Shown: piece after piece, positions 42,553 to 56,124 of the stretch | How the letters are laid out: each line of letters opens with the position of its first letter | How positions within the stretch are numbered: the first letter of the stretch is position 1 | From: Leptolyngbya subtilissima AS-A7 | Lineage (GTDB): Bacteria; Cyanobacteriota; Cyanobacteriia; Phormidesmidales; Phormidesmidaceae | DNA: 64,000 nt | Direction of reading: 5' to 3' | Assembly (NCBI RefSeq): GCF_039962255.1 | Contig: NZ_JAMPKY010000009.1 | Location: forward strand, 124,001 to 188,000 | Position numbers and translations under genes: made by a program | Notes under the pieces: generated by a model | Seen by the model: only the letters and a program-made list of their open reading frames with translations | Database searches by the model: none | Told to the model about the DNA's origin: nothing

Positions 42553-43275
42553 ATGACAACTGGCATTTCGGGGGCTTCCCATCTGAGAGTAGATGTTGTC
42601 AGCCTGTTTCCAGACTTTTTTGTATCTCCCTTAGAGTCAGGGCTGATTGGTAAAGCCCTGGCCCGCCAAATTGCAGAAGTTTATCTTACCAATCCCAGGG
42701 ACTTTACAACGGACAAGCACCACCGGGTCGATGACGAACCCTATGGCGGTGGTGTAGGCATGCTGATGAAGCCAGACCCAATTTTTGCGGCTGTAGAATC
42801 GCTGCCCGTGCTGCCCCGACGCGAGGTGATTTTGCTCACCCCCCAAGGCGAGGCGATGACCCAAGACCTGTTTCGCCATCTCGTCACCCTGGATCAGCTG
42901 GTGCTGATCTGCGGCCACTACGAAGGGGTCGATGAGCGCGTCAGCCACCTGCTGACGCGAGAGGTCTCCCTGGGAGACTTTGTGCTCACCTGCGGCGAAA
43001 TTCCGGCCCTGGCATTGATCAATGGCGTGGTGCGGCTGCTGCCGGGCACCGTGGGTAAAACTGACTCCCTGCGTTTTGAAAGCTTTGAGACCCCGCTGCT
43101 CGACTACCCCCAGTACACTCGCCCCGCCAGCTTTCGCGGCTGGGAGGTGCCGGAGGTGCTGCGCTCGGGTAATCACGAGGCGATCGCCCAGTGGCGCAGG
43201 CAGCAGCAGATCGAGCGCACACGGCAGCGGCGGCCCGATCTATATGAGCGGTGGGTGGAGGAGTGTGGGGAGTAG
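42553..43275 (+). CDS. trmD: tRNA (guanine37-N1)-methyltransferase
   Basis: SPOUT-family trefoil-knot enzyme making m1G37, which prevents +1 frameshifting. Visible are VVSLFPDFF near the start, DDEPYGGGVGMLMKPDP, the knot region LICGHYEGVDERV, GDFVLTCGEIPALALINGV and LDYPQYTRPASFRGWEVP. 240 residues, normal length. It precedes ispF by about 157 bases that contain G-rich repeats. Confidence 0.96.
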   Translation: MTTGISGASHLRVDVVSLFPDFFVSPLESGLIGKALARQIAEVYLTNPRDFTTDKHHRVDDEPYGGGVGMLMKPDPIFAAVESLPVLPRREVILLTPQGEAMTQDLFRHLVTLDQLVLICGHYEGVDERVSHLLTREVSLGDFVLTCGEIPALALINGVVRLLPGTVGKTDSLRFESFETPLLDYPQYTRPASFRGWEVPEVLRSGNHEAIAQWRRQQQIERTRQRRPDLYERWVEECGE

Positions 43276-43336
43276 GTGGGTAGATGGGTGGATGGGTAGA
43301 TGGGTAGGAGGGTGGATGGGTAGGAGGGTGAGGGGA
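43276..43336 (+). repeat. G-rich octamer tandem repeat, G-quadruplex candidate
   Basis: About seven imperfect octamers of the type GGGTRGAT begin right after the trmD stop. Runs of GGG recur every 8 bases (GGG-N5-GGG-N5-GGG), which is a G-quadruplex-forming pattern on the plus strand. The same octamer in the opposite orientation occurs near 49605, 53242 and 55345. Confidence 0.85.
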
Positions 43337-49310: not shown

Positions 49311-49398
49311 TTTCTAATGGTTGAGCAATTGCTAAGCCTATTAGTGCATCAACCGTCGACTTAAGTCGCCAGTCACTCAACCAGTTCTAATAGCCAAA

Positions 49399-49590
49399 CG
49401 GTTTCTAGGGTTCCGGCTTGCCGCCGCTGCGGTGGAGCGTCTGGTCCGAGAGAAACCGCCAGATCAGTCACTGGCCCCGCTTCAACAGCAGGGCTCACGG
49501 CATCTGGTACACGGCGGGATAAAAGCCCGGGAGGATAGCGAAGCATTGCTTGGCCATTCTCTCGGGCTGCTGTGTTTCATAACGTTTTTT
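49399..49590 (+). promoter_or_regulatory. Guanidine-I (ykkC class) riboswitch with competing hairpin
   Basis: The aptamer spans 49399-49534. P1 arms CGGTTT (49399-49404) and AAACCG (49453-49458) enclose the conserved CTAGGGTTCCG (49405-49415) and CTGGTCCGAGAG (49441-49452). P3 arms CCAGAT (49459-49464) and ATCTGG (49502-49507) are followed by the diagnostic ACACGGCGGGATAAAAGCCC (49509-49528). These match ykkC-RNA conserved blocks. AGCCCGGGAG (49524-49533), the 3' edge of the aptamer, can instead pair over ten bases with CTCTCGGGCT (49559-49568), with six T residues at 49585-49590. Ligand binding would therefore block this hairpin and allow expression. ykkC variants sensing ppGpp or PRPP are the alternative; the downstream transporter genes favour guanidine. 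Confidence 0.9.
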
Positions 49591-49602
49591 CTCCTGTAGC
49601 AC

Positions 49603-49649
49603 CTATTCACCACCCATCCGCCCATCCACCCATTTACCCCTACCCACCT
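49603..49649 (+). repeat. C-rich octamer tandem repeat directly before a start codon
   Basis: Imperfect period-8 units (TCCGCCCA, TCCACCCA, TTTACCCC, TACCCACC) fill the space between the riboswitch region and the ATG at 49650. No Shine-Dalgarno sequence is present. Confidence 0.75.
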
Positions 49650-51011
49650 ATGGCCCACCCGCTAACTCCTGAAATCGAAGCGCTGAAATCCTCTTTGGAG
49701 CATAAAGGCGTCAAGTACGCCCTGGCCAGCTATGTGGATATCCACGGCATGGGCAAGGCCAAAATGGTGCCTCTGGCTCACCTGGGTCAAATGATGGCGG
49801 GTTCAGAGCTGTTTACCGGCGCGGCCCTCGATGGGGTGCCCCAGGAGATTAGCGATGAGGAAGTGGCGGCAATGCCCGACCCGGCCTCGGCTACGGTGCT
49901 GCCCTGGAAACCCGAAGTCGCCTGGTTTGCCAGTGATCTGTACCTTAAGGGACAACCCTTTGAGGCATGCTGCCGCACCATTCTCAAGCAAATGCTGGCC
50001 AAGGCAGCGGCGATGGGGTTTACCTTTAACCTGGGCATCGAGACCGAGTTTTTCATGCTCAAGGAAAACGCTGACGGTAGCTTTGGGCCGGTGAGCGATC
50101 GCGACCACCTCGCCAAACCCTGCTACGACCTACCCAGCCTGCTCGACAACGCCCCCTGGCTGAGCGAACTGGTGGAATACATGAACCAGCTCGGTTGGGA
50201 TGTCTATTCCTTTGACCACGAAGACGCCAACGGCCAGTTTGAGACCGACTTTGCCTACAGCGACGCCCTGACCATGGCCGATCGCCTCACCTTCTTTCGG
50301 CTGATGGTGAAGGAGATCGCCCGCAAACACGGCTATTTCGCCAGCTTTATGCCCAAGCCCTTCGGCGATCGCACCGGTAGCGGCGCCCACTACAACATGT
50401 CTTTGGCCGATATCCAGACCGGGCAAAACCTGTTTGAAGACCCGGACGACCCACGCGGCTGCAAGCTCTCTAAGCTGGGCTACCAGTTTATTGCTGGGGT
50501 GCTGCGCCACGCCAAGGCGATCTGCGCCGTCACCTGCCCCACGGTCAACAGCTACAAGCGGCTGCTGCGCCAGGGCAGCATGTCGGGCTTTACCTGGGCC
50601 CCGGTTTACATCTGCTACGGCAACAACAACCGCACCAACATGCTGCGCATTCCCCTGGCGGGAGGCCGGGTCGAGTGCCGCGCTGCCGATATTGCCACCA
50701 ACCCGTATCTGGGGGCCGCAATGATTCTCGCCGCCGGGCTAGAGGGCATTGCTGAGGGGATTGATCCCGGTGACCCCCACACCGAAAACATGTACAACTA
50801 CTCCCTAGCTGACCTGCAGGCGATGGGCATCGACATGCTGCCTCGCACGCTGCAAGAGGCGATCGACGCCTTTGAGGCCGACTCGCTCAGCCAGGCCGTG
50901 ATGGGGCCGCTGATGTACCAGACCTACATTGATTTTCGCCGTCGGGAATGGGAGGAGTACCACACCCACATTTCTGACTGGGAAATTAAGCGGTATCTCA
51001 AGTTTTTCTAG
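49650..51011 (+). CDS. GlnT-type glutamine-synthetase-like ligase
   Basis: A 453-residue gamma-glutamyl ligase of the GS superfamily, closest in motif style to the rhizobial GlnT (type III in TIGR03105) group. Start chosen at ATG 49650 (MAHPLTPEIEALKSS). Motifs: YVDIHGMGKAKMVPLAHLG, metal ligands in NLGIETEFFM (about 127) and HEDANGQFETDF, GDRTGSGAHYNMSL with the metal histidine, NNRTNMLRIPLAGGRVECRA and ATNPYLGAAMILAAGLEGI. The catalytic framework looks intact. Ordinary GS assimilates ammonia, but relatives (PuuA, IpuC, AtdA1/TdnQ) glutamylate amines. First gene after the guanidine-I riboswitch, so guanidine, a derivative, or ammonia released from it is the likely co-substrate (inference). 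Confidence 0.88.
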   Translation: MAHPLTPEIEALKSSLEHKGVKYALASYVDIHGMGKAKMVPLAHLGQMMAGSELFTGAALDGVPQEISDEEVAAMPDPASATVLPWKPEVAWFASDLYLKGQPFEACCRTILKQMLAKAAAMGFTFNLGIETEFFMLKENADGSFGPVSDRDHLAKPCYDLPSLLDNAPWLSELVEYMNQLGWDVYSFDHEDANGQFETDFAYSDALTMADRLTFFRLMVKEIARKHGYFASFMPKPFGDRTGSGAHYNMSLADIQTGQNLFEDPDDPRGCKLSKLGYQFIAGVLRHAKAICAVTCPTVNSYKRLLRQGSMSGFTWAPVYICYGNNNRTNMLRIPLAGGRVECRAADIATNPYLGAAMILAAGLEGIAEGIDPGDPHTENMYNYSLADLQAMGIDMLPRTLQEAIDAFEADSLSQAVMGPLMYQTYIDFRRREWEEYHTHISDWEIKRYLKFF

Positions 51012-51088
51012 CGCTCGCCCCTCGCTCCAGGGTGTCCCAAACACCCACAGCTTTCCCTGTAGTTTTTGAGTCTCAAACATCCACCGCC

Positions 51089-52132
51089 ATGAAACGACGT
51101 ACCTTTTTACCCACGCTGTTTGCCTTTTTTTGCAGCCTGCTGATTACCGTTAGCTGTGCTCAAAACGCGCCCCAGGCCGATGCCCCCGCCGATGCCCCTG
51201 CGACTGCTACAGCGGGGGAACCCATAAAGCTCGGCTACAGCAGCTGGGCGGGCTGGTGGCCCTGGGCGATCGCCGAAGAAGAGGGCCTATTTGAAAAGAA
51301 TGGGGCCAACGTCGAGCTGATCTGGTTTGACGGCTACCTAGAATCAATCCAATCCCTAGCCGCCGGGCAACTCGATGCCAACAGCCAAACCCTCAACGAC
51401 ACCATCTCCTTTGCCGGGGATGCCGTCAACGGCATGGTGGCGGTGCTGGTCAACGACAACTCCGCCGGTAACGACAAGGTAATTGGGGCTGAGGGCATCG
51501 ACACCGTCGCCGATCTGGCTGGCAAAACCGTAGCCCTAGAGGAGGGCGTAGTGGGCGACTTTTTGCTCAGCCTGGCGTTGGAAGATGCTGGGCTAACCCG
51601 AGACGATGTAGAAATCAAGAATTTGGAAACCGGGGCTGCAGCCACGGCCTTTGCTGCCGAGCAGGTAGATGGCTTTGCCGGCTGGGTACCCTTCTGGGAA
51701 ACGGCGCTTTCGCGCGAAGGCAGCAAAGAGCTGGCGAGCTCGGCAGATTACCCGGGCGCGATTCCTGACCTGCTGGTGGTGACCCAGAAGCTGATCGACA
51801 GCCGCCCTGACCAGGTGCAAGCCCTGGTGAATACCTGGTTCGACATTCTGGCCTTTATTGAGGAAAACCCTGAGCGGGCCAACGAGATCATGGCCAAGCG
51901 AGCCAGCGTCAGCGACACCGAGTTTGAGAAGTATACCGAGGGCACCAAAATTTTCACTCTAGATGAAAACTTAGAAGCCTTTAGCGCAGGCGGTGACGAC
52001 ATGAAATACATGCCCTACGCCGCTCAGAAAATGGCCGAATTCATGGTGGAGCTTAAGTTTATCCCCGAGTCCCCTGACCTAGAGGCCATTCTCGATGACC
52101 AATTTATTAAGGCCTACACCGCCAAGAAGTAG
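51089..52132 (+). CDS. ABC transporter substrate-binding lipoprotein (SsuA/TauA/NMT1 type)
   Basis: 347 residues from ATG 51089. The N-terminal MKRRTFLPTLFAFFCSLL then ITVSC is a lipoprotein signal with Cys lipobox. The mature protein is a type II periplasmic binding protein: IKLGYSSWAGWWPWAIAEEE, SLAAGQLDANSQTLNDT, LAGKTVALEEGVVGDFLLSL, AEQVDGFAGWVPFWE. The family binds sulfonates, taurine, nitrate, thiamine precursors and, in riboswitch-controlled members, guanidine. The tryptophan-rich SSWAGWWPW near the ligand cleft is consistent with a cationic planar ligand, by inference. It lies 77 bases after the GS-like gene, before the permease. Confidence 0.92.
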   Translation: MKRRTFLPTLFAFFCSLLITVSCAQNAPQADAPADAPATATAGEPIKLGYSSWAGWWPWAIAEEEGLFEKNGANVELIWFDGYLESIQSLAAGQLDANSQTLNDTISFAGDAVNGMVAVLVNDNSAGNDKVIGAEGIDTVADLAGKTVALEEGVVGDFLLSLALEDAGLTRDDVEIKNLETGAAATAFAAEQVDGFAGWVPFWETALSREGSKELASSADYPGAIPDLLVVTQKLIDSRPDQVQALVNTWFDILAFIEENPERANEIMAKRASVSDTEFEKYTEGTKIFTLDENLEAFSAGGDDMKYMPYAAQKMAEFMVELKFIPESPDLEAILDDQFIKAYTAKK

Positions 52133-52138
52133 CCGTTG

Positions 52139-53059
52139 ATGCAAGCCCCGATCGCCGTTCTGTGGATGATGGGGGCTAATGCTTTTCAGGTTTGTTGTAC
52201 GTTTGGGCTAACCCCTGTGACTCCCGCTTCCCCTTCCTTTTCCACCGCGCCCACCGCCCCCCAGGGCATGAAGCCTAGTGTCTTTTGGCGACTGGCCGAC
52301 GACATTCCCAAACCGATGAGCACGGCGCTAATGGTGCTCTCCATTGCGGTGCCCTTTGCTCTGTGGTGGATAGTGGCCAGCCTGGATCTGGTGAATGACA
52401 AGTTTTTGCCCTCACCGATTCAGGTGGCCCAGGCGCTGGGGCGGCTTTGGACGGATGGCTTTCTGCTGGAAGATACCGCCGCCAGCATTATGCGGGTGAC
52501 CGTGGGCTTTTTGCTGGCGGCGCTGGTGTCGATCCCCATCGGCATTGCGATGGGAGCCTTTGCTAGTGTGCGATCGCTGCTCGAACCCATTGTTGGCGTG
52601 GTGCGCTACATGCCCGCCCCCGCCTTCATTCCCCTGCTGCTGATCTATCTGGGCCTGGGCGAAGCACCCAAAATCGCCCTGATCTTTATGGGCACCGTGT
52701 TCTTCAACATCCTGATGATCATGGATGCGGTGAAGTTTGTGCCCAAGGCCCTGCTCGAAACCACCTACACCCTGGGCGGGCAGCGGCGACAGGCGCTGTT
52801 TCAGGTGATTACGCCCTACGTGGTGCCCAACATTATTGACACCTTTCGCATCAACATTGCCACCTCCTGGAACCTGGTGGTGGTAGCGGAGCTGGTGGCG
52901 GCGGAAAACGGTTTGGGCAAACGGATCGTGCTGGCCCAAAAGTTTTTCAACACCGACGAAATCTTTGCCTGCCTGATCATTCTGGGCGTAATCGGCTTTG
53001 CCCTAGATTTATCGCTGCGAGGGTTGATGAAAGCCACTTGTAAATGGGCGATAGATTGA
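52139..53059 (+). CDS. ABC transporter permease (SsuC/TauC type)
   Basis: 306 residues from ATG 52139, 6 bases after the binding-protein gene; an internal ATG at 52268 (MKPSVFWRLADD) may be the true start because the first 44 residues are non-conserved. Six membrane helices, with the family text FLPSPIQVAQALGRL, FLLAALVSIPIGIAMGA, YMPAPAFIPLLLIYLGLGEA and the coupling loop TYTLGGQRRQALFQVITPY. Forms the membrane channel with the ATPase encoded at 53314, although about 250 bases of repeat-containing DNA separate them. Confidence 0.93.
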   Translation: MQAPIAVLWMMGANAFQVCCTFGLTPVTPASPSFSTAPTAPQGMKPSVFWRLADDIPKPMSTALMVLSIAVPFALWWIVASLDLVNDKFLPSPIQVAQALGRLWTDGFLLEDTAASIMRVTVGFLLAALVSIPIGIAMGAFASVRSLLEPIVGVVRYMPAPAFIPLLLIYLGLGEAPKIALIFMGTVFFNILMIMDAVKFVPKALLETTYTLGGQRRQALFQVITPYVVPNIIDTFRINIATSWNLVVVAELVAAENGLGKRIVLAQKFFNTDEIFACLIILGVIGFALDLSLRGLMKATCKWAID

Positions 53060-53217
53060 GCGCTGGCGTTCCCTCAGCTTGTGAGGTGCGCGATAGATCC
53101 CTCGAGATTCTCGCGTTCTAAGATTCACTCCGTAACCCCGTTAAAAAGGGGGCAGGGGGGATCAACCAGGGTATCCCACCTTCTCTATTCATCCTTGAGC
53201 CGACTCAATCTAGCTTT

Positions 53218-53313
53218 GGTGGGCACTGCCCACCCTACGGCGTACCCATCCACCCTCCTACCCATCCACCCTCCTACCCATCCACCCGCCCACCCCTACC
53301 CCCACTCCCCACC
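53218..53313 (+). repeat. Composite repeat: palindrome plus C-rich octamers
   Basis: GGTGGGCA-C-TGCCCACC (53218-53234) is a perfect 8-base inverted repeat followed by CCTACGG and about nine period-8 units alternating ACCCATCC and ACCCTCCT, ending at the ATG of the ATPase gene. The same composite recurs at 55332-55386. It interrupts the operon between permease and ATPase. Confidence 0.85.
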
Positions 53314-54087
53314 ATGCACTTAGAAATCAACAACCTTAGCAAACAGTTCGACACCCGCCAGGGACCGGTGCTGGCGCTCGACGACATCAACATGCACGTA
53401 GAAACGGGCGAATTTGTCTGCGTGGTCGGAGCCTCAGGCTCCGGAAAATCTACGCTGCTGCGGCTGGTGGCAGGGCTAGATATGCCCACGGCGGGGGAAA
53501 TGACGGTGGATGGCCAAGTGGTGACGGGGCCAGGATCCGATCGCGGCATGATCTTCCAGAGCTACACCCTGTACCCCTGGATGTCGGTGCAGAAAAATGT
53601 CGAATTTGGTCTCAAGCTTCAGGGCGTGGGGCCGCGGGAGCGGCGGGAGATGGCCTCCTACTATCTAGACGTGGTGGGGCTGACCAAGTTTGCGCGATCG
53701 TTGCCCAAGCAGCTCTCTGGTGGCATGAAGCAGCGGGTGGCGATCGCCCGCACCCTGGCCTCGCGGCCCAAAATTATGCTGATGGATGAGCCTTTTGGCG
53801 CGCTAGATGTGCAGACCAAGGAGACCATGCAGCAGTTCATGCTCGACCTGTGGAACCGTACCGGGGTGAGCATTTTGATGATTACCCACGATGTCGATGA
53901 GGCGGTGTTTCTCTCCCAGCGGATCTACGTGCTAACAGCGCACCCCGGCACCATTCAGCGGGAGGTGTTTGTGGACTTGCCCAGCGATCGCACCTACACC
54001 ATTCGCCGCGATCGCGCTTTTCAAGACTACCGCGAAGGCATTATGGATCTGCTGCGGGGAAAGACGACGCCAGCCTTAGTGAGCTGA
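53314..54087 (+). CDS. ABC transporter ATP-binding protein (SsuB/TauB type)
   Basis: 257-residue ATPase energising the transporter. Walker A VVGASGSGKSTLLRLVAG (about 36-53), Q-loop FQSYTLYPWMSVQKNV, signature LSGGMKQRVAIARTLA, Walker B KIMLMDEPFGALD and H-loop MITHDVDEAVFLS are complete. The DVQTKETMQQFMLDLW text is typical of the nitrate/sulfonate/bicarbonate family. The gene overlaps no neighbour; the Rieske gene begins 16 bases after its stop. Confidence 0.95.
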   Translation: MHLEINNLSKQFDTRQGPVLALDDINMHVETGEFVCVVGASGSGKSTLLRLVAGLDMPTAGEMTVDGQVVTGPGSDRGMIFQSYTLYPWMSVQKNVEFGLKLQGVGPRERREMASYYLDVVGLTKFARSLPKQLSGGMKQRVAIARTLASRPKIMLMDEPFGALDVQTKETMQQFMLDLWNRTGVSILMITHDVDEAVFLSQRIYVLTAHPGTIQREVFVDLPSDRTYTIRRDRAFQDYREGIMDLLRGKTTPALVS

Positions 54088-54103
54088 TGGGGAGTGAACG
54101 CTG

Positions 54104-55255
54104 ATGGTTTCCAGTCTGCCGCTGCAATGGTCGAAGACCGGCCCCCAAGGGTCCTCACCGGTTCCTCCCGACGTTCACGGGCTGCCAGAACAATTTTTAC
54201 TCACCGCTGACCACTACACCAATCCTGAATGGATTCCGATAGAGCAGCGGGCGATCTTTCGTCGCACTTGGCTCTACGCGGGCGATGGCGATCGCCTTCA
54301 GTCAGGCATGGTGTGGGCCAAGTCGGTGGCGGGCGCTCCCCTGCTGCTCGTTCGAGACAACGATGGCGAGCTACGGGCCTTTTACAACCTCTGTCCCCAC
54401 CGGGCCGCAATTTTGTCGCCCCAAGCGGGCATTCACCCCTGTCAAAAGCTGGTCTGCCCCTACCACGCTTGGGTGTATGACCTTTCTGGAGATTTGGTGG
54501 GTGTGCCCTCCCAAAATCAGTTTCCGGAGTCGTTTGAGAAGCAGAATTTCCCCCTGCGATCGCTGCGGCTAGAGACCTGGTCGGGCTTTATGTTTGTCTG
54601 CTTCGACGACAGTGCGCCGCCGCTAGTCGAGTTTCTCGGCAGCATCCCCGAGCACCTAGGGCAGCACCGCACCCCCGCCACCCAACCCCTGGCGGCCAAG
54701 CAATACACCGTCGCCTGCAACTGGAAGAACTACCACGACAACACCCTGTGCGACTACCACGTGGCGATCGCCCACCGCACCACCCTAAACCAAGTGCAAG
54801 GCCCCATTCGCCGCTACCAGCACCAGCTCGAAGCCTTCGTTAACCTGCTCTACACACCCACTACTGCCGACTGGCAGGCCGAAAACCCTATTTCACCGGC
54901 CCTCCAGGGCCGCAGCCGCGAGGGATTTTTTACCTACGGCATTTACCCTAACCTGCACCTGCTAGGGCTACCCAACGGTCTGTTAGCCTGGCTGCACATT
55001 GAGCCGCTCACCGTCGAGTCTTGCCAAGTTTCCCTAGACCTCTACGGCGACCCCGCATTTTGTCCACCCACCGAAACCCTGCTAGCCGAATTTGAAGCCT
55101 TTATGCAGGAAGACATGGTGCTCACCGAAAGCGTGCAGCAGGGCTACGCCAGTGGTGCCTACACCCCCGGCCCAGTGAATGGCCTAGAAACGCGAATTAT
55201 CCACCAGCAAAAACTGATCTGGGACGCCCTTGTCGCCGTTGGTAGTACCGAATAA
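54104..55255 (+). CDS. Rieske non-haem iron oxygenase, alpha subunit
   Basis: A 383-residue ring-hydroxylating-type oxygenase. The Rieske 2Fe-2S ligands are C97 and H99 (NLCPHRA) and C117 and H120 (LVCPYHAWVYD). The mononuclear iron site is NWKNYHDNTLCDYHVAIAHR, with H218 and H223; the third carboxylate is probably in the FEAFMQEDM region. The family oxidises aromatic rings, but also choline, betaine, carnitine and other N-alkyl compounds. It requires a reductase, which is not encoded nearby. Located 16 bases after the ATPase gene, so it belongs to the guanidine-riboswitch operon. The pairing with a GS-like ligase recalls aniline dioxygenase systems. Confidence 0.92.
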   Translation: MVSSLPLQWSKTGPQGSSPVPPDVHGLPEQFLLTADHYTNPEWIPIEQRAIFRRTWLYAGDGDRLQSGMVWAKSVAGAPLLLVRDNDGELRAFYNLCPHRAAILSPQAGIHPCQKLVCPYHAWVYDLSGDLVGVPSQNQFPESFEKQNFPLRSLRLETWSGFMFVCFDDSAPPLVEFLGSIPEHLGQHRTPATQPLAAKQYTVACNWKNYHDNTLCDYHVAIAHRTTLNQVQGPIRRYQHQLEAFVNLLYTPTTADWQAENPISPALQGRSREGFFTYGIYPNLHLLGLPNGLLAWLHIEPLTVESCQVSLDLYGDPAFCPPTETLLAEFEAFMQEDMVLTESVQQGYASGAYTPGPVNGLETRIIHQQKLIWDALVAVGSTE

Positions 55256-55331
55256 CAGCACGGCTTAAGCACGGGCAAACCACCGTTCGCCCCTACGCGG
55301 AACCCTGGTTGTATAGCGCTAGGATTCCGCT

Positions 55332-55386
55332 GGTGGGCAGTGCCCACCCTACCCATCCACCCTCCCACCCATCCACCTCCCACCCC
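55332..55386 (+). repeat. Composite repeat: palindrome plus C-rich octamers, second copy
   Basis: GGTGGGCA-G-TGCCCACC (55332-55348) followed by ACCCATCC, ACCCTCCC, ACCCATCC, ACCTCCCA units up to the ATG at 55387. Same architecture as 53218-53313. Confidence 0.85.
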
Positions 55387-56124
55387 ATGCCCTCCAACCC
55401 CTTCCTCGGCGTCTGGCAACGCCGCTCCATCCAGTTTGACCAAGGCCCCATCGAAACCAGCCAATCGGTCCTGTGGATTCAAGCCGAAACCTACTTTGCC
55501 GATGTGCGCAGTGCTCCCTTTGCAGGACGGTTGACGCCAGAGCGGTATCGGGCGATGGATTGGCGATCGCGCTTTGACGCCGACCTGCTGGGCTTTGCCG
55601 GCACTTTTAGCTGGACTGAGTCCCCCCCGATCTGCACCTGGCACCATCGCCTTGCCCTTACCCCACGGCAGTGGCCCGACACCAGCAATTATCAATGGCT
55701 GGGGCCAGACGATTTTTTAGAGCATGGCACCTGTGAGGATGACGAGGGCGGCCTCCACCCTTTTGTTGAGCACTGGTATCGCCTTCACCCCGGCCCGGTG
55801 CAGGTGTGGCGTCTGGATCGGTCAGATCAGCAGGGGCAGGCCCTCAGGGTTGGCAACTGGGCCGTCTTGGTGCATCAATGGCGATCGCGCAGCGTCTCCA
55901 GTGGAGAATCGCCCACCATTGCCTCTTTGCAGGATGCTGAGAACTTTCGCGCGTTTTCTGCCACCGCCTGGGAGTATCGGCAGGGCACCTGGCAGGCTCT
56001 GTTTGGCACTGAGGCTAGCCTGGGCGCCCCACCCCGGTGGACGCCGCTGGATTTAGATGACCCGCTCGGCCTGTGGCAGCTAGAGCGATCGGCCCCAGTG
56101 AGCCAGAGCCTAGAGCTTAACTAA
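55387..56124 (+). CDS. HRI1-like protein, function unknown
   Basis: A 245-residue soluble protein (ATG 55387, MPSNPFLGVWQRRSIQFDQG). The beta-rich N-terminus with GVWQRRSIQF and TSQSVLWIQAETYFADVR resembles the HRI1 fold (two lipocalin-like barrels) known from fungal and scattered bacterial proteins of unknown function. It ends LGLWQLERSAPVSQSLELN. No catalytic motif is obvious. It follows the Rieske gene by 131 bases across a composite repeat and may belong to the same operon; a role as small-molecule-binding accessory is speculation. Confidence 0.65.
   Translation: MPSNPFLGVWQRRSIQFDQGPIETSQSVLWIQAETYFADVRSAPFAGRLTPERYRAMDWRSRFDADLLGFAGTFSWTESPPICTWHHRLALTPRQWPDTSNYQWLGPDDFLEHGTCEDDEGGLHPFVEHWYRLHPGPVQVWRLDRSDQQGQALRVGNWAVLVHQWRSRSVSSGESPTIASLQDAENFRAFSATAWEYRQGTWQALFGTEASLGAPPRWTPLDLDDPLGLWQLERSAPVSQSLELN

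What the first reader, a model, noticed from the sequence alone, without database searches (positions are those of the whole stretch)
49399..56124. Guanidine-I riboswitch driving a GS-like ligase, an ABC transporter and a Rieske oxygenase: candidate new guanidine-use pathway
Seen: conserved ykkC-class blocks (CTAGGGTTCCG, CTGGTCCGAGAG, ACACGGCGGGATAAAAGCCC) with matching P1 and P3 stems, and six same-strand genes downstream: GlnT-like ligase, binding lipoprotein, permease, ATPase, Rieske oxygenase, HRI1-like protein. Known: guanidine-I RNAs usually control SMR exporters, guanidine/urea carboxylases, or in cyanobacteria the nickel-dependent guanidine hydrolase GdmH with an SsuABC-like transporter. 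Neither hydrolase nor carboxylase is here. Aniline dioxygenase systems (AtdA1/TdnQ plus Rieske) and IpuC or PuuA pathways glutamylate an amine before oxidising it. Inference: guanidine or an alkylguanidine is imported, gamma-glutamylated and/or oxidised by the Rieske enzyme to yield assimilable nitrogen. I do not know of a published description of this combination.
Basis: partly seen in the sequence, partly recalled or inferred. Interest (0 to 1): 0.95.

Follow-up and report, generated by a model that had tools for sequence, protein, structure and literature searches.

The report
Guanidine-sensing operon with extra enzymes
A cyanobacterium splits its guanidine-eating genes between two guanidine-sensing RNA switches, and the one found here also controls an importer, an amine-tagging enzyme and an oxygenase that probably let it feed on modified guanidines as well.

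Summary
In detail: a Guanidine-I riboswitch (RF00442, 78.3 bits, gathering score 63) precedes ligase, SsuABC-like importer, Rieske oxygenase and HRI1-like genes. The reading "no hydrolase, so a new guanidine-use pathway" fails in its main point. The same genome (genus Nodosilinea) has a second Guanidine-I riboswitch driving guanidinase GdmH plus HypA/HypB without an importer, and relatives keep everything in one operon. The two arms are a split version of the known guanidinase regulon.

What looks new is the accessory set. The "GlnT" is neither glutamine synthetase nor canonical gamma-glutamylmethylamide synthetase: it lacks the ammonium-site Asp and Glu-flap Glu, and two of seven amine-pocket residues are changed identically in 85 of 88 clade members. 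That clade lies within 9 kb of a Guanidine-I riboswitch at 48 of 90 loci. The Rieske clade has a riboswitch at 34 of 52, beside either guanidinase or guanidine carboxylase. Nine of nine riboswitch-ligase genomes tested have one of the two known routes. Best reading: accessory enzymes that feed substituted guanidines into those routes. Substrates are inferred, not shown. I found no published description in the papers I could search.

The parts
49394..49535 (+). Guanidine-I (ykkC class) riboswitch aptamer
   Evidence: RF00442, 78.3 bits, gathering 63, full model
49524..49568 (+). Terminator-like hairpin overlapping the 3' end of the aptamer; T-run at 49585-49590, about 16 nt after the stem, so not a textbook terminator. 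Inferred ON switch with guanidine
   Evidence: fold of 49518-49600: -32.6 kcal/mol, z -3.97; whole leader z -2.84
49650..51011 (+). Ligase of the glutamine-synthetase superfamily, GmaS/GoaS type (ORF opens at 49572)
   Evidence: TIGR03105 593 bits; best PDB match 9qur glutamate--methylamine ligase 435 bits, glutamine synthetases 276 or less; pocket residues
51032..52132 (+). SsuA-family substrate-binding protein, lipoprotein-like N-terminus by eye (probable start ATG 51089)
   Evidence: TIGR01728 272.6 bits, cut-off 163.5
52136..53059 (+). ABC permease
   Evidence: PF00528
53314..54087 (+). ABC ATPase
   Evidence: PF00005
54104..55255 (+). Rieske non-haem iron oxygenase alpha subunit, nearest solved relatives CntA and stachydrine demethylase; motif HDNTLCDYH
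   Evidence: PF00355, PF00848; PDB by sequence and by model; motif
55387..56124 (+). HRI1-like beta-barrel protein (ORF opens at 55309)
   Evidence: PF16815; AF2 model matches 3rby, E 2.7e-6; relatives in 29 of 149 loci searched, 19 distinct sequences

Best explanation
The operon is the import and substrate-preparation arm of a guanidine-assimilation regulon that is split in this genus. SHOWN by sequence: a Guanidine-I riboswitch precedes this operon, and a second one precedes GdmH-HypA-HypB elsewhere in the genome. INFERRED: guanidine rises, both riboswitches switch on, the SsuABC-like transporter imports guanidine and substituted guanidines, GdmH makes urea + ammonium, and urease finishes. 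The two accessory enzymes are inferred to widen the diet to substituted guanidines. The Rieske enzyme, of the cationic-amine N-dealkylating type, would oxidatively remove an N-alkyl group (methylguanidine is the simplest candidate), giving guanidine + aldehyde. The GoaS-type ligase would gamma-glutamylate a cationic amine or guanidine with ATP, either tagging the substrate or capturing an amine by-product. The HRI1-like barrel could bind a small ligand. The logic resembles the MgdH/MgdL extension of the guanidine carboxylase operon in Vreelandella, with an unrelated oxygenase.
For: Second riboswitch with GdmH-HypA-HypB and no importer; GdmH identity: 7esr/7oi1 828 bits, 9fek 589 bits. Unsplit versions: RS-GdmH-HypA-HypB-SBP-PERM-ATP-Rieske-HRI1 in a genome of the same genus (L143) and RS-GdmH-HypA-ligase-HypB-SBP-PERM-ATP (L067, L186, L187, L189). 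Urease alpha in the genome. Ligase clade: riboswitch within 9 kb at 48 of 90 loci, riboswitch, GdmH or Gca at 52 of 90; riboswitch-linked in nine unnamed families (families). Rieske clade: riboswitch at 34 of 52 motif-bearing loci, any guanidine gene (GdmH, Gca/Cgd, HypA/B) at 39 of 52, with GdmH (for example L073) or with guanidine carboxylase genes (L147, L149, L153-L155). Control in one scan: riboswitch, GdmH or Gca in 16 of 26 close Rieske loci (L191-L215, L223) and in 0 of 53 loci of about 30%-identical relatives. Nine of nine riboswitch-ligase genomes without GdmH or Gca next to the ligase have one of them elsewhere (GdmH 4, Gca 5). Rieske model: top PDB hits CntA and stachydrine demethylase. 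Literature: a comammox guanidinase gave no urea from methylguanidine, reported as consistent with the cyanobacterial enzyme (PMC11410670, passages), and the V. boliviensis Gd-I aptamer does not bind methylguanidine up to 1 mM (PMC12508155, passages), so a dealkylation step would be needed to use it.
Against: No substrate was tested. Six Rieske-clade loci with about 9 kb or more of contig upstream have no guanidine gene within 9 kb (L079, L082, L084, L152, L161, L162), although two of these genomes (G062, G172) have RS-GdmH elsewhere (L083, L085). 38 of 90 ligase loci have no guanidine context; 13 of those pair with a class-I glutamine amidotransferase instead. No reductase or dedicated lyase for the Rieske enzyme is among the six genes. 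The clade's motif has Cys where other Rieske oxygenases carry the bridging carboxylate, except in family f20, so catalysis itself needs proof. N-dealkylation of methylguanidine gives no amine, so the ligase role is not explained by that reaction alone.
Confidence: 0.5

Rival explanations
1. Replacement pathway: guanidine itself is gamma-glutamylated and/or oxidised here to give assimilable nitrogen, instead of being hydrolysed or carboxylated.
For: Ligase and Rieske are riboswitch-controlled with no hydrolase or carboxylase in this operon. The amine pocket has an extra carboxylate, D188 for N188.
Against: GdmH is in the same regulon here. Nine of nine riboswitch-ligase genomes tested still carry GdmH or Gca. 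GdmH followed by urease already gives all three nitrogens without ATP.
Confidence: 0.1
2. Methylamine handling: the ligase is a functional gamma-glutamylmethylamide synthetase that captures methylamine or another small amine released from, or taken up with, methylated guanidines.
For: Nearest solved structures are methylamine ligases. It lacks the ammonium-site Asp and the Glu-flap Glu, as GmaS does (criteria from PMC7948447, passages). Precedent: metformin-degrading Aminobacter pairs an agmatinase-hypAB cluster with dimethylamine monooxygenase, gmaS and the N-methylglutamate genes (PMC11446756, passages).
Against: Two of seven MMA-site residues differ from every GmaS/GSb sequence compared (S for Q175, D for N188), while the second ligase of the same genome (L170) keeps Q and N. 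No N-methylglutamate pathway genes were noticed in the operons read; they were not searched for genome-wide.
Confidence: 0.22
3. The ligase simply assimilates the ammonium released by GdmH and urease.
For: TIGR03105 is named type III glutamate--ammonia ligase.
Against: The residue for the ammonium-binding Asp is Thr and the Glu-flap position is Trp. RhGmaS has a much higher Km for ammonium than for methylamine (PMC7948447, passage).
Confidence: 0.06
4. The Rieske enzyme acts on an unrelated nitrogen compound that is taken up by the same transporter, and shares the operon only because both answer nitrogen limitation.
For: Six Rieske-clade loci lie away from guanidine genes, two of them with a full ABC importer (L079, L082). 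Related two-Rieske clusters hold creatininase- and biuret-hydrolase-like genes without a riboswitch.
Against: 34 of 52 loci are riboswitch-linked, in at least five unnamed families and with both guanidine routes.
Confidence: 0.12

Closest known systems
Synechocystis-type gdmH operon (sll1077, hypA, hypB, sll1080-1082)
   Same: Guanidine-I riboswitch, GdmH, HypA/HypB and SsuABC-like importer in one regulon (PMC8390497 passages; PMC12186494 section 6)
   Different: Here split over two riboswitches, with a GoaS-type ligase, a Rieske oxygenase and an HRI1-like protein added
MgdH/MgdL extension of the guanidine carboxylase operon in Vreelandella boliviensis
   Same: An oxygenase inside a Gd-I riboswitch operon that prepares methylguanidine for a guanidine-degrading enzyme (PMC12508155 passages)
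   Different: MgdH is a 2-oxoglutarate dioxygenase with a lyase partner; here a Rieske oxygenase of another fold, reaction untested
Aniline / 1-naphthylamine dioxygenase systems (AtdA, NpaA)
   Same: Glutamine-synthetase-like amine ligase encoded with a Rieske oxygenase (PMC11335346 passages)
   Different: Those have a glutamine amidotransferase, a two-component oxygenase and a reductase; here none, and Rieske and ligase also occur without each other
Gamma-glutamylmethylamide synthetase (GmaS, RhGmaS 7cql; 9qur)
   Same: Overall sequence, loss of the ammonium-site Asp, Trp in place of the Glu-flap Glu, five of seven amine-site residues
   Different: Q175 to S and N188 to D in 85 of 88 members of this clade
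Quaternary-ammonium Rieske monooxygenases (CntA, stachydrine demethylase, GbcA)
   Same: Best matches by sequence and by model
   Different: Only about 25% identical to CntA and far below the GbcA cut-off (114.8 vs 670 bits); motif HDNxL[C/D]DYH instead of ENxxESYH

Membership tests
Guanidine-I riboswitch (RF00442) | Covariance-model score above gathering threshold over the full model | tested here: met
   78.3 bits vs 63, model 1-107
Guanidine-I riboswitch (RF00442) | Binds guanidine and not ppGpp or PRPP | not testable with these tools
   No other Rfam family competed on the stretch; binding needs in-line probing
gdmH regulon | GdmH with HypA/HypB under a Guanidine-I riboswitch | tested here: met
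   Met for the genome, not for this operon: G000:C5, L033 12258-14907
Guanidine carboxylase pathway (Gca, CgdA/B) | Gca or CgdA/B in the operon | tested here: not met
   None of the six genes; Gca not searched in the whole own genome
Glutamine synthetase | Ammonium-binding Asp and catalytic Glu in the Glu flap | tested here: not met
   Thr and Trp at those positions
Canonical GmaS | MMA-site residues K30', Y147, Q175, D177, E179, E186, N188 | tested here: not met
   Five of seven kept; Q175 is S, N188 is D
TIGR03105 type III glutamate--ammonia ligase | Score above curated cut-off | tested here: met
   593.2 vs 469.6; the GmaS structure 7cql bears the same name
GoaS (organic amide synthetase) class | Glutamylates an organic amine; GS Asp and Glu catalytic residues lost | tested here: inconclusive
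   Residue loss met; activity not testable; additional 15th motif not examined
Rieske non-haem iron oxygenase alpha subunit | CxH...CxxH cluster motif and YHxxxxH iron site | tested here: met
   CPHR...CPYH and DYHVAIAH
Rieske non-haem iron oxygenase alpha subunit | Bridging Asp/Glu three residues before the first iron-site His | tested here: not met
   Cys there in the window protein and most of the clade, Asp in f20; an Asp follows at the next position. That the bridging residue is general is recalled
AtdA/NpaA-type gamma-glutamylamine dioxygenase system | GS-like ligase plus glutamine amidotransferase plus two-component Rieske plus reductase | tested here: not met
   No amidotransferase, beta subunit or reductase among the six genes

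The most novel reading that the evidence does not exclude
The ligase makes gamma-glutamylguanidine (or gamma-glutamyl-alkylguanidine), an N-acylguanidine. The glutamyl tag lets a Rieske oxygenase dealkylate the tethered guanidine, and a hydrolase then frees guanidine for GdmH or Gca. In a number of riboswitch operons that hydrolase would be the creatininase-family protein found near the ligase (18 of 90 ligase loci, 10 of them riboswitch-linked); creatininase acts on creatinine, itself a cyclic N-acylguanidine (recalled chemistry). This would be an undescribed acylguanidine intermediate and an upstream module shared by both known guanidine pathways in cyanobacteria. Against it for this genome: no close homologue (E <= 1e-40) of that creatininase-like protein was found in the 60 family genomes searched (the tool warns that an empty answer without a known positive shows nothing), and Rieske genes also occur without the ligase.
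Probability: 0.17. Interest if true: 0.9.

Novelty: new variant of a known kind. Interest (0 to 1): 0.68.

Why it matters
Guanidine biology has two established degradation routes and few known natural sources. A conserved set of accessory enzymes that answers the same riboswitch and accompanies either route would point to substituted guanidines as what cyanobacteria actually meet in nature, and to new enzymes that release guanidine. The ligase clade is common (85 of 388 class genomes), and the window member carries the family name "glutamate--ammonia ligase", which is probably wrong. The hypothesis is directly testable with purified enzymes and with a culture-collection strain, Nodosilinea nodulosa PCC 7104.

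Tried and rejected
Rejected: a chance riboswitch match; the operon as sole guanidine pathway; glutamine synthetase activity as the main role; an obligate ligase-then-Rieske pair. Looked for and not found: riboswitch at gathering score in L148 and L150, which hold GdmH-HypA-ligase-HypB-ABC-Rieske; a close homologue of the creatininase-family gene in 60 genomes of the window's family.

Published links: searches found no paper with all terms. One search found two papers with "guanidine riboswitch" and "Rieske"; passages show the words in unrelated sections. One search found six with "ykkC" and "glutamine synthetase"; I saw passages of two, where they are unrelated, and only the listing of four. 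One search found four, of which I saw passages of one. Searches were broader; some searches listed 20 of 172, 37 and 16,833. The library holds only openly licensed PMC papers; the two papers most likely to list riboswitch-linked genes (Nelson 2017, Funck 2022) are not held and were not read.

Limits: riboswitch counts rest on a consensus pattern (plus L080, added from cmscan). Among known riboswitch loci L067-L126 the pattern missed L080, L086 and L112; cmscan agreed with it on the other loci checked, except that in L271 cmscan showed a second riboswitch that the pattern missed; 90 place groups from 91 places, two neighbouring copies in one genome counted once. One search used 88 of the 90; two fragments under 300 aa were left out. 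Searches tested nine of the fourteen place groups with a riboswitch but no GdmH, Gca/Cgd or Rieske within 9 kb. Most named cyanobacterial loci are the same places as unnamed ones (equal contig lengths), so and one search are not independent, and related species are not independent either.
Full report
OBSERVATION. The RF00442 model matches window 49394-49535 (+) end to end with 78.3 bits (gathering score 63), and no other Rfam family competes there. Downstream, on the same strand, lie ORFs for a glutamine-synthetase-superfamily ligase, an SsuA-family binding protein, a permease, an ATPase, a Rieske oxygenase and an HRI1-like protein. The leader can fold a strong hairpin at 49524-49568 that uses the 3' end of the aptamer. 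That suits an ON switch by anti-termination, but the T-run lies about 16 nt beyond the stem, so this is an inference.

THE REST OF THE GENOME. The genome gave two RF00442 matches at E <= 0.001. The other, at G000:C5:134916-135049 (-), precedes an ORF whose best solved relatives are 7esr/7oi1 (828 bits) and 9fek (589 bits), deposited as agmatinase 2. These are, from recall, the Synechocystis and Nitrospira guanidinases. HypA- and HypB-like genes follow, and no transporter. Urease alpha is present. In the published Synechocystis arrangement the same six functions sit in one operon (PMC8390497, passages; PMC12186494, section 6). Here they are divided: one riboswitch for GdmH-HypA-HypB, one for the importer with the extra genes. 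Gca was not searched for in the whole own genome.

COMPARATIVE ANATOMY. In a sample of 339 genomes of the phylum, 111 had an RF00442 match. Reading the neighbourhoods gave a canonical order RS-GdmH-HypA-HypB-SBP-PERM-ATP and repeated extensions of it. Rieske after the ATPase occurs in families f12 and f20 and in L143 and L146. The ligase between HypA and HypB, or between HypB and the binding protein, occurs in L067, L186, L187, L189 and in g55 of f20. L148 and L150 hold ligase and Rieske with GdmH but no riboswitch. In L147 and L149 Rieske and ligase lie beside RS-CgdA-CgdB-Gca, and in L153-L155 Rieske lies directly upstream of RS-CgdA-CgdB. A further type is RS-ATPase-SBP-creatininase-like-ligase-permease (L272-L274, L285, L287, L306), and L309 has GdmH-HypA-HypB in front of it; riboswitches there were confirmed by cmscan. 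Named genomes place the window's relatives in Nodosilinea and neighbours: G519, of the window's genus, has the contig length of N. nodulosa PCC 7104, and that strain (L201) has the same operon as the window.

COUNTS. Ligase clade (E <= 1e-150): 85 of 388 class genomes, 91 places. Of 90 place groups, 48 have a riboswitch within 9 kb and 52 a riboswitch, GdmH or Gca; 30 have some Rieske gene, 18 a creatininase-family gene, 13 a class-I glutamine amidotransferase. Rieske clade: of 55 loci examined 52 carry the motif HDNxL[C/D]DYH; 34 of these have a riboswitch and 39 some guanidine gene (GdmH, Gca/Cgd or HypA/B) within 9 kb. Of the 13 without, seven have less than 5 kb of contig upstream and six have about 9 kb or more; three of the seven genomes (G345, G367, G561) show GdmH on another contig. 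Control: among loci of one scan, 16 of 26 close Rieske loci have riboswitch, GdmH or Gca (18 with HypB counted), against 0 of 53 loci with about 30%-identical relatives (L216-L269 without L223), of which one has a HypB-like gene and three have the ligase. Queries and riboswitch pattern are cyanobacterial, so this control leans somewhat towards zero. With one or two riboswitches in about 5.5 Mb, an 18-kb window would hold one in fewer than 1% of places (my estimate).

WHICH ROUTE DO THEY SERVE? Nine riboswitch-ligase genomes without GdmH or Gca beside the ligase were searched whole: four have GdmH (81-85% identical) and the other five have Gca over its whole length (67-74% identical, in one genome as two aligned pieces); the four GdmH genomes show only biotin-carboxylase-sized matches to Gca. 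Together with the Rieske gene's presence in both contexts, this says that the accessory enzymes serve something upstream of, or parallel to, guanidine breakdown and do not replace it.

THE LIGASE. Best solved relatives: 9qur glutamate--methylamine ligase (435 bits), 7cql GmaS (349 bits), glutamine synthetases at most 276. Using the residue assignments of PMC7948447 (passages), the window protein has Thr for the ammonium-binding Asp, Trp for the Glu-flap Glu, and keeps Lys30', Tyr147, Asp177, Glu179, Glu186 and Arg312; but Gln175 is Ser and Asn188 is Asp. In 88 sequences of the clade, 85 share the full pattern; the three exceptions branch at the base and lack guanidine neighbours. The GmaS-like paralogues and the two GmaS structures compared keep Gln and Asn, while the one glutamine synthetase compared has Ala and Asp there. 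The enzyme is therefore not a glutamine synthetase and not a canonical GmaS; an added carboxylate and a smaller neighbour would suit a larger cation. A sister group with the same pocket sits beside a class-I amidotransferase and, divergently, a GmaS-like gene with Fe-ADH and ALDH, without riboswitch. So the pocket is not proof of guanidine as substrate.

THE OXYGENASE. By sequence and by an AlphaFold model (mean pLDDT 85) its nearest solved relatives are CntA (carnitine monooxygenase) and stachydrine demethylase, enzymes that cut C-N bonds of cationic nitrogen compounds (recalled, and as the entry titles say). It has the Rieske and iron-site motifs, but Cys where seven distant relatives have Glu three residues before the first histidine, followed by Asp; family f20 has Asp there. 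Because a Gd-I aptamer and a guanidinase reject methylguanidine (PMC12508155 and PMC11410670, passages) and a 2-oxoglutarate dioxygenase plus lyase demethylates it inside a Gd-I operon of Vreelandella, N-dealkylation of an alkylguanidine is the most economical proposal for this Rieske enzyme. It is untested.

THE HRI1-LIKE PROTEIN. The model (mean pLDDT 80) matches yeast HRI1. A profile found relatives in 29 of 149 fetched loci, 19 distinct sequences. 28 of these loci show a Rieske cluster motif, and the other, L159, has a Rieske gene cut by the contig end. The set searched included riboswitch loci without Rieske, in which none was found, but it was made of loci fetched for this study.

VERDICT. 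A real and well-conserved riboswitch operon, misread as a stand-alone pathway. It is a variant of the known guanidine-I/GdmH regulon. Its real interest is the recurrent ligase and Rieske genes (and, elsewhere, a creatininase-family gene), for which I found no published function; see Tried and rejected for the searches and their limits.

Noticed in passing
L242 112-11811 (same place as L311) and L239 2354-14212 (same place as L280); partial in L240: Riboswitch-free clusters with two Rieske oxygenases of another subfamily, a creatininase-like gene, the same ligase clade, SDR and ABC transporter; L242 also has a true creatininase (TIGR04448, 379 bits, cut-off 235), L239 a biuret-hydrolase-like gene (345 bits, cut-off 370), and both an HRI1-like gene. 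Possibly creatinine or related guanidino-compound use.
   Followed up: partly
L272-L274, L285, L287, L306, L309: Guanidine-I riboswitch operons in which a creatininase-family hydrolase stands between the binding protein and the ligase.
   Followed up: partly
L171-L177, L179-L182: Sister group of the ligase near a divergent GmaS-like gene; in L171 a class-I glutamine amidotransferase precedes it and Fe-type alcohol and aldehyde dehydrogenases follow the GmaS-like gene. Looks like a gamma-glutamylated amino-alcohol pathway.
   Followed up: partly
L069 11569-14985; similar order in L071: After the Rieske gene of L069: a fatty-acid-desaturase-like oxygenase with a weak match to the arginine hydroxylase GntB, a MetX-like alpha/beta hydrolase and a second GmaS-like ligase. 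The same hydrolase family also adjoins the Rieske gene in L148 and L206.
   Followed up: no
window 54104-55255, motif at the iron site: The Rieske clade carries Cys-Asp-Tyr-His instead of the Glu-x-Tyr-His of distant relatives, so the usual bridging carboxylate is displaced, except in family f20.
   Followed up: partly
L271 2919-3513; G361:C1:293675-294178; G486:C181:56362-56858: Pairs of divergent Guanidine-I riboswitches a few hundred bases apart, pointing to operons in opposite directions.
   Followed up: no
window 53219-53298 and 55333-55373; also 43275-43320: GTGGGCANTGCCCACCCTAC followed by CCCATCCACCC-type repeats before the ATPase and HRI1-like genes; the C-rich repeat also occurs at 43.3 kb.
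   Followed up: no
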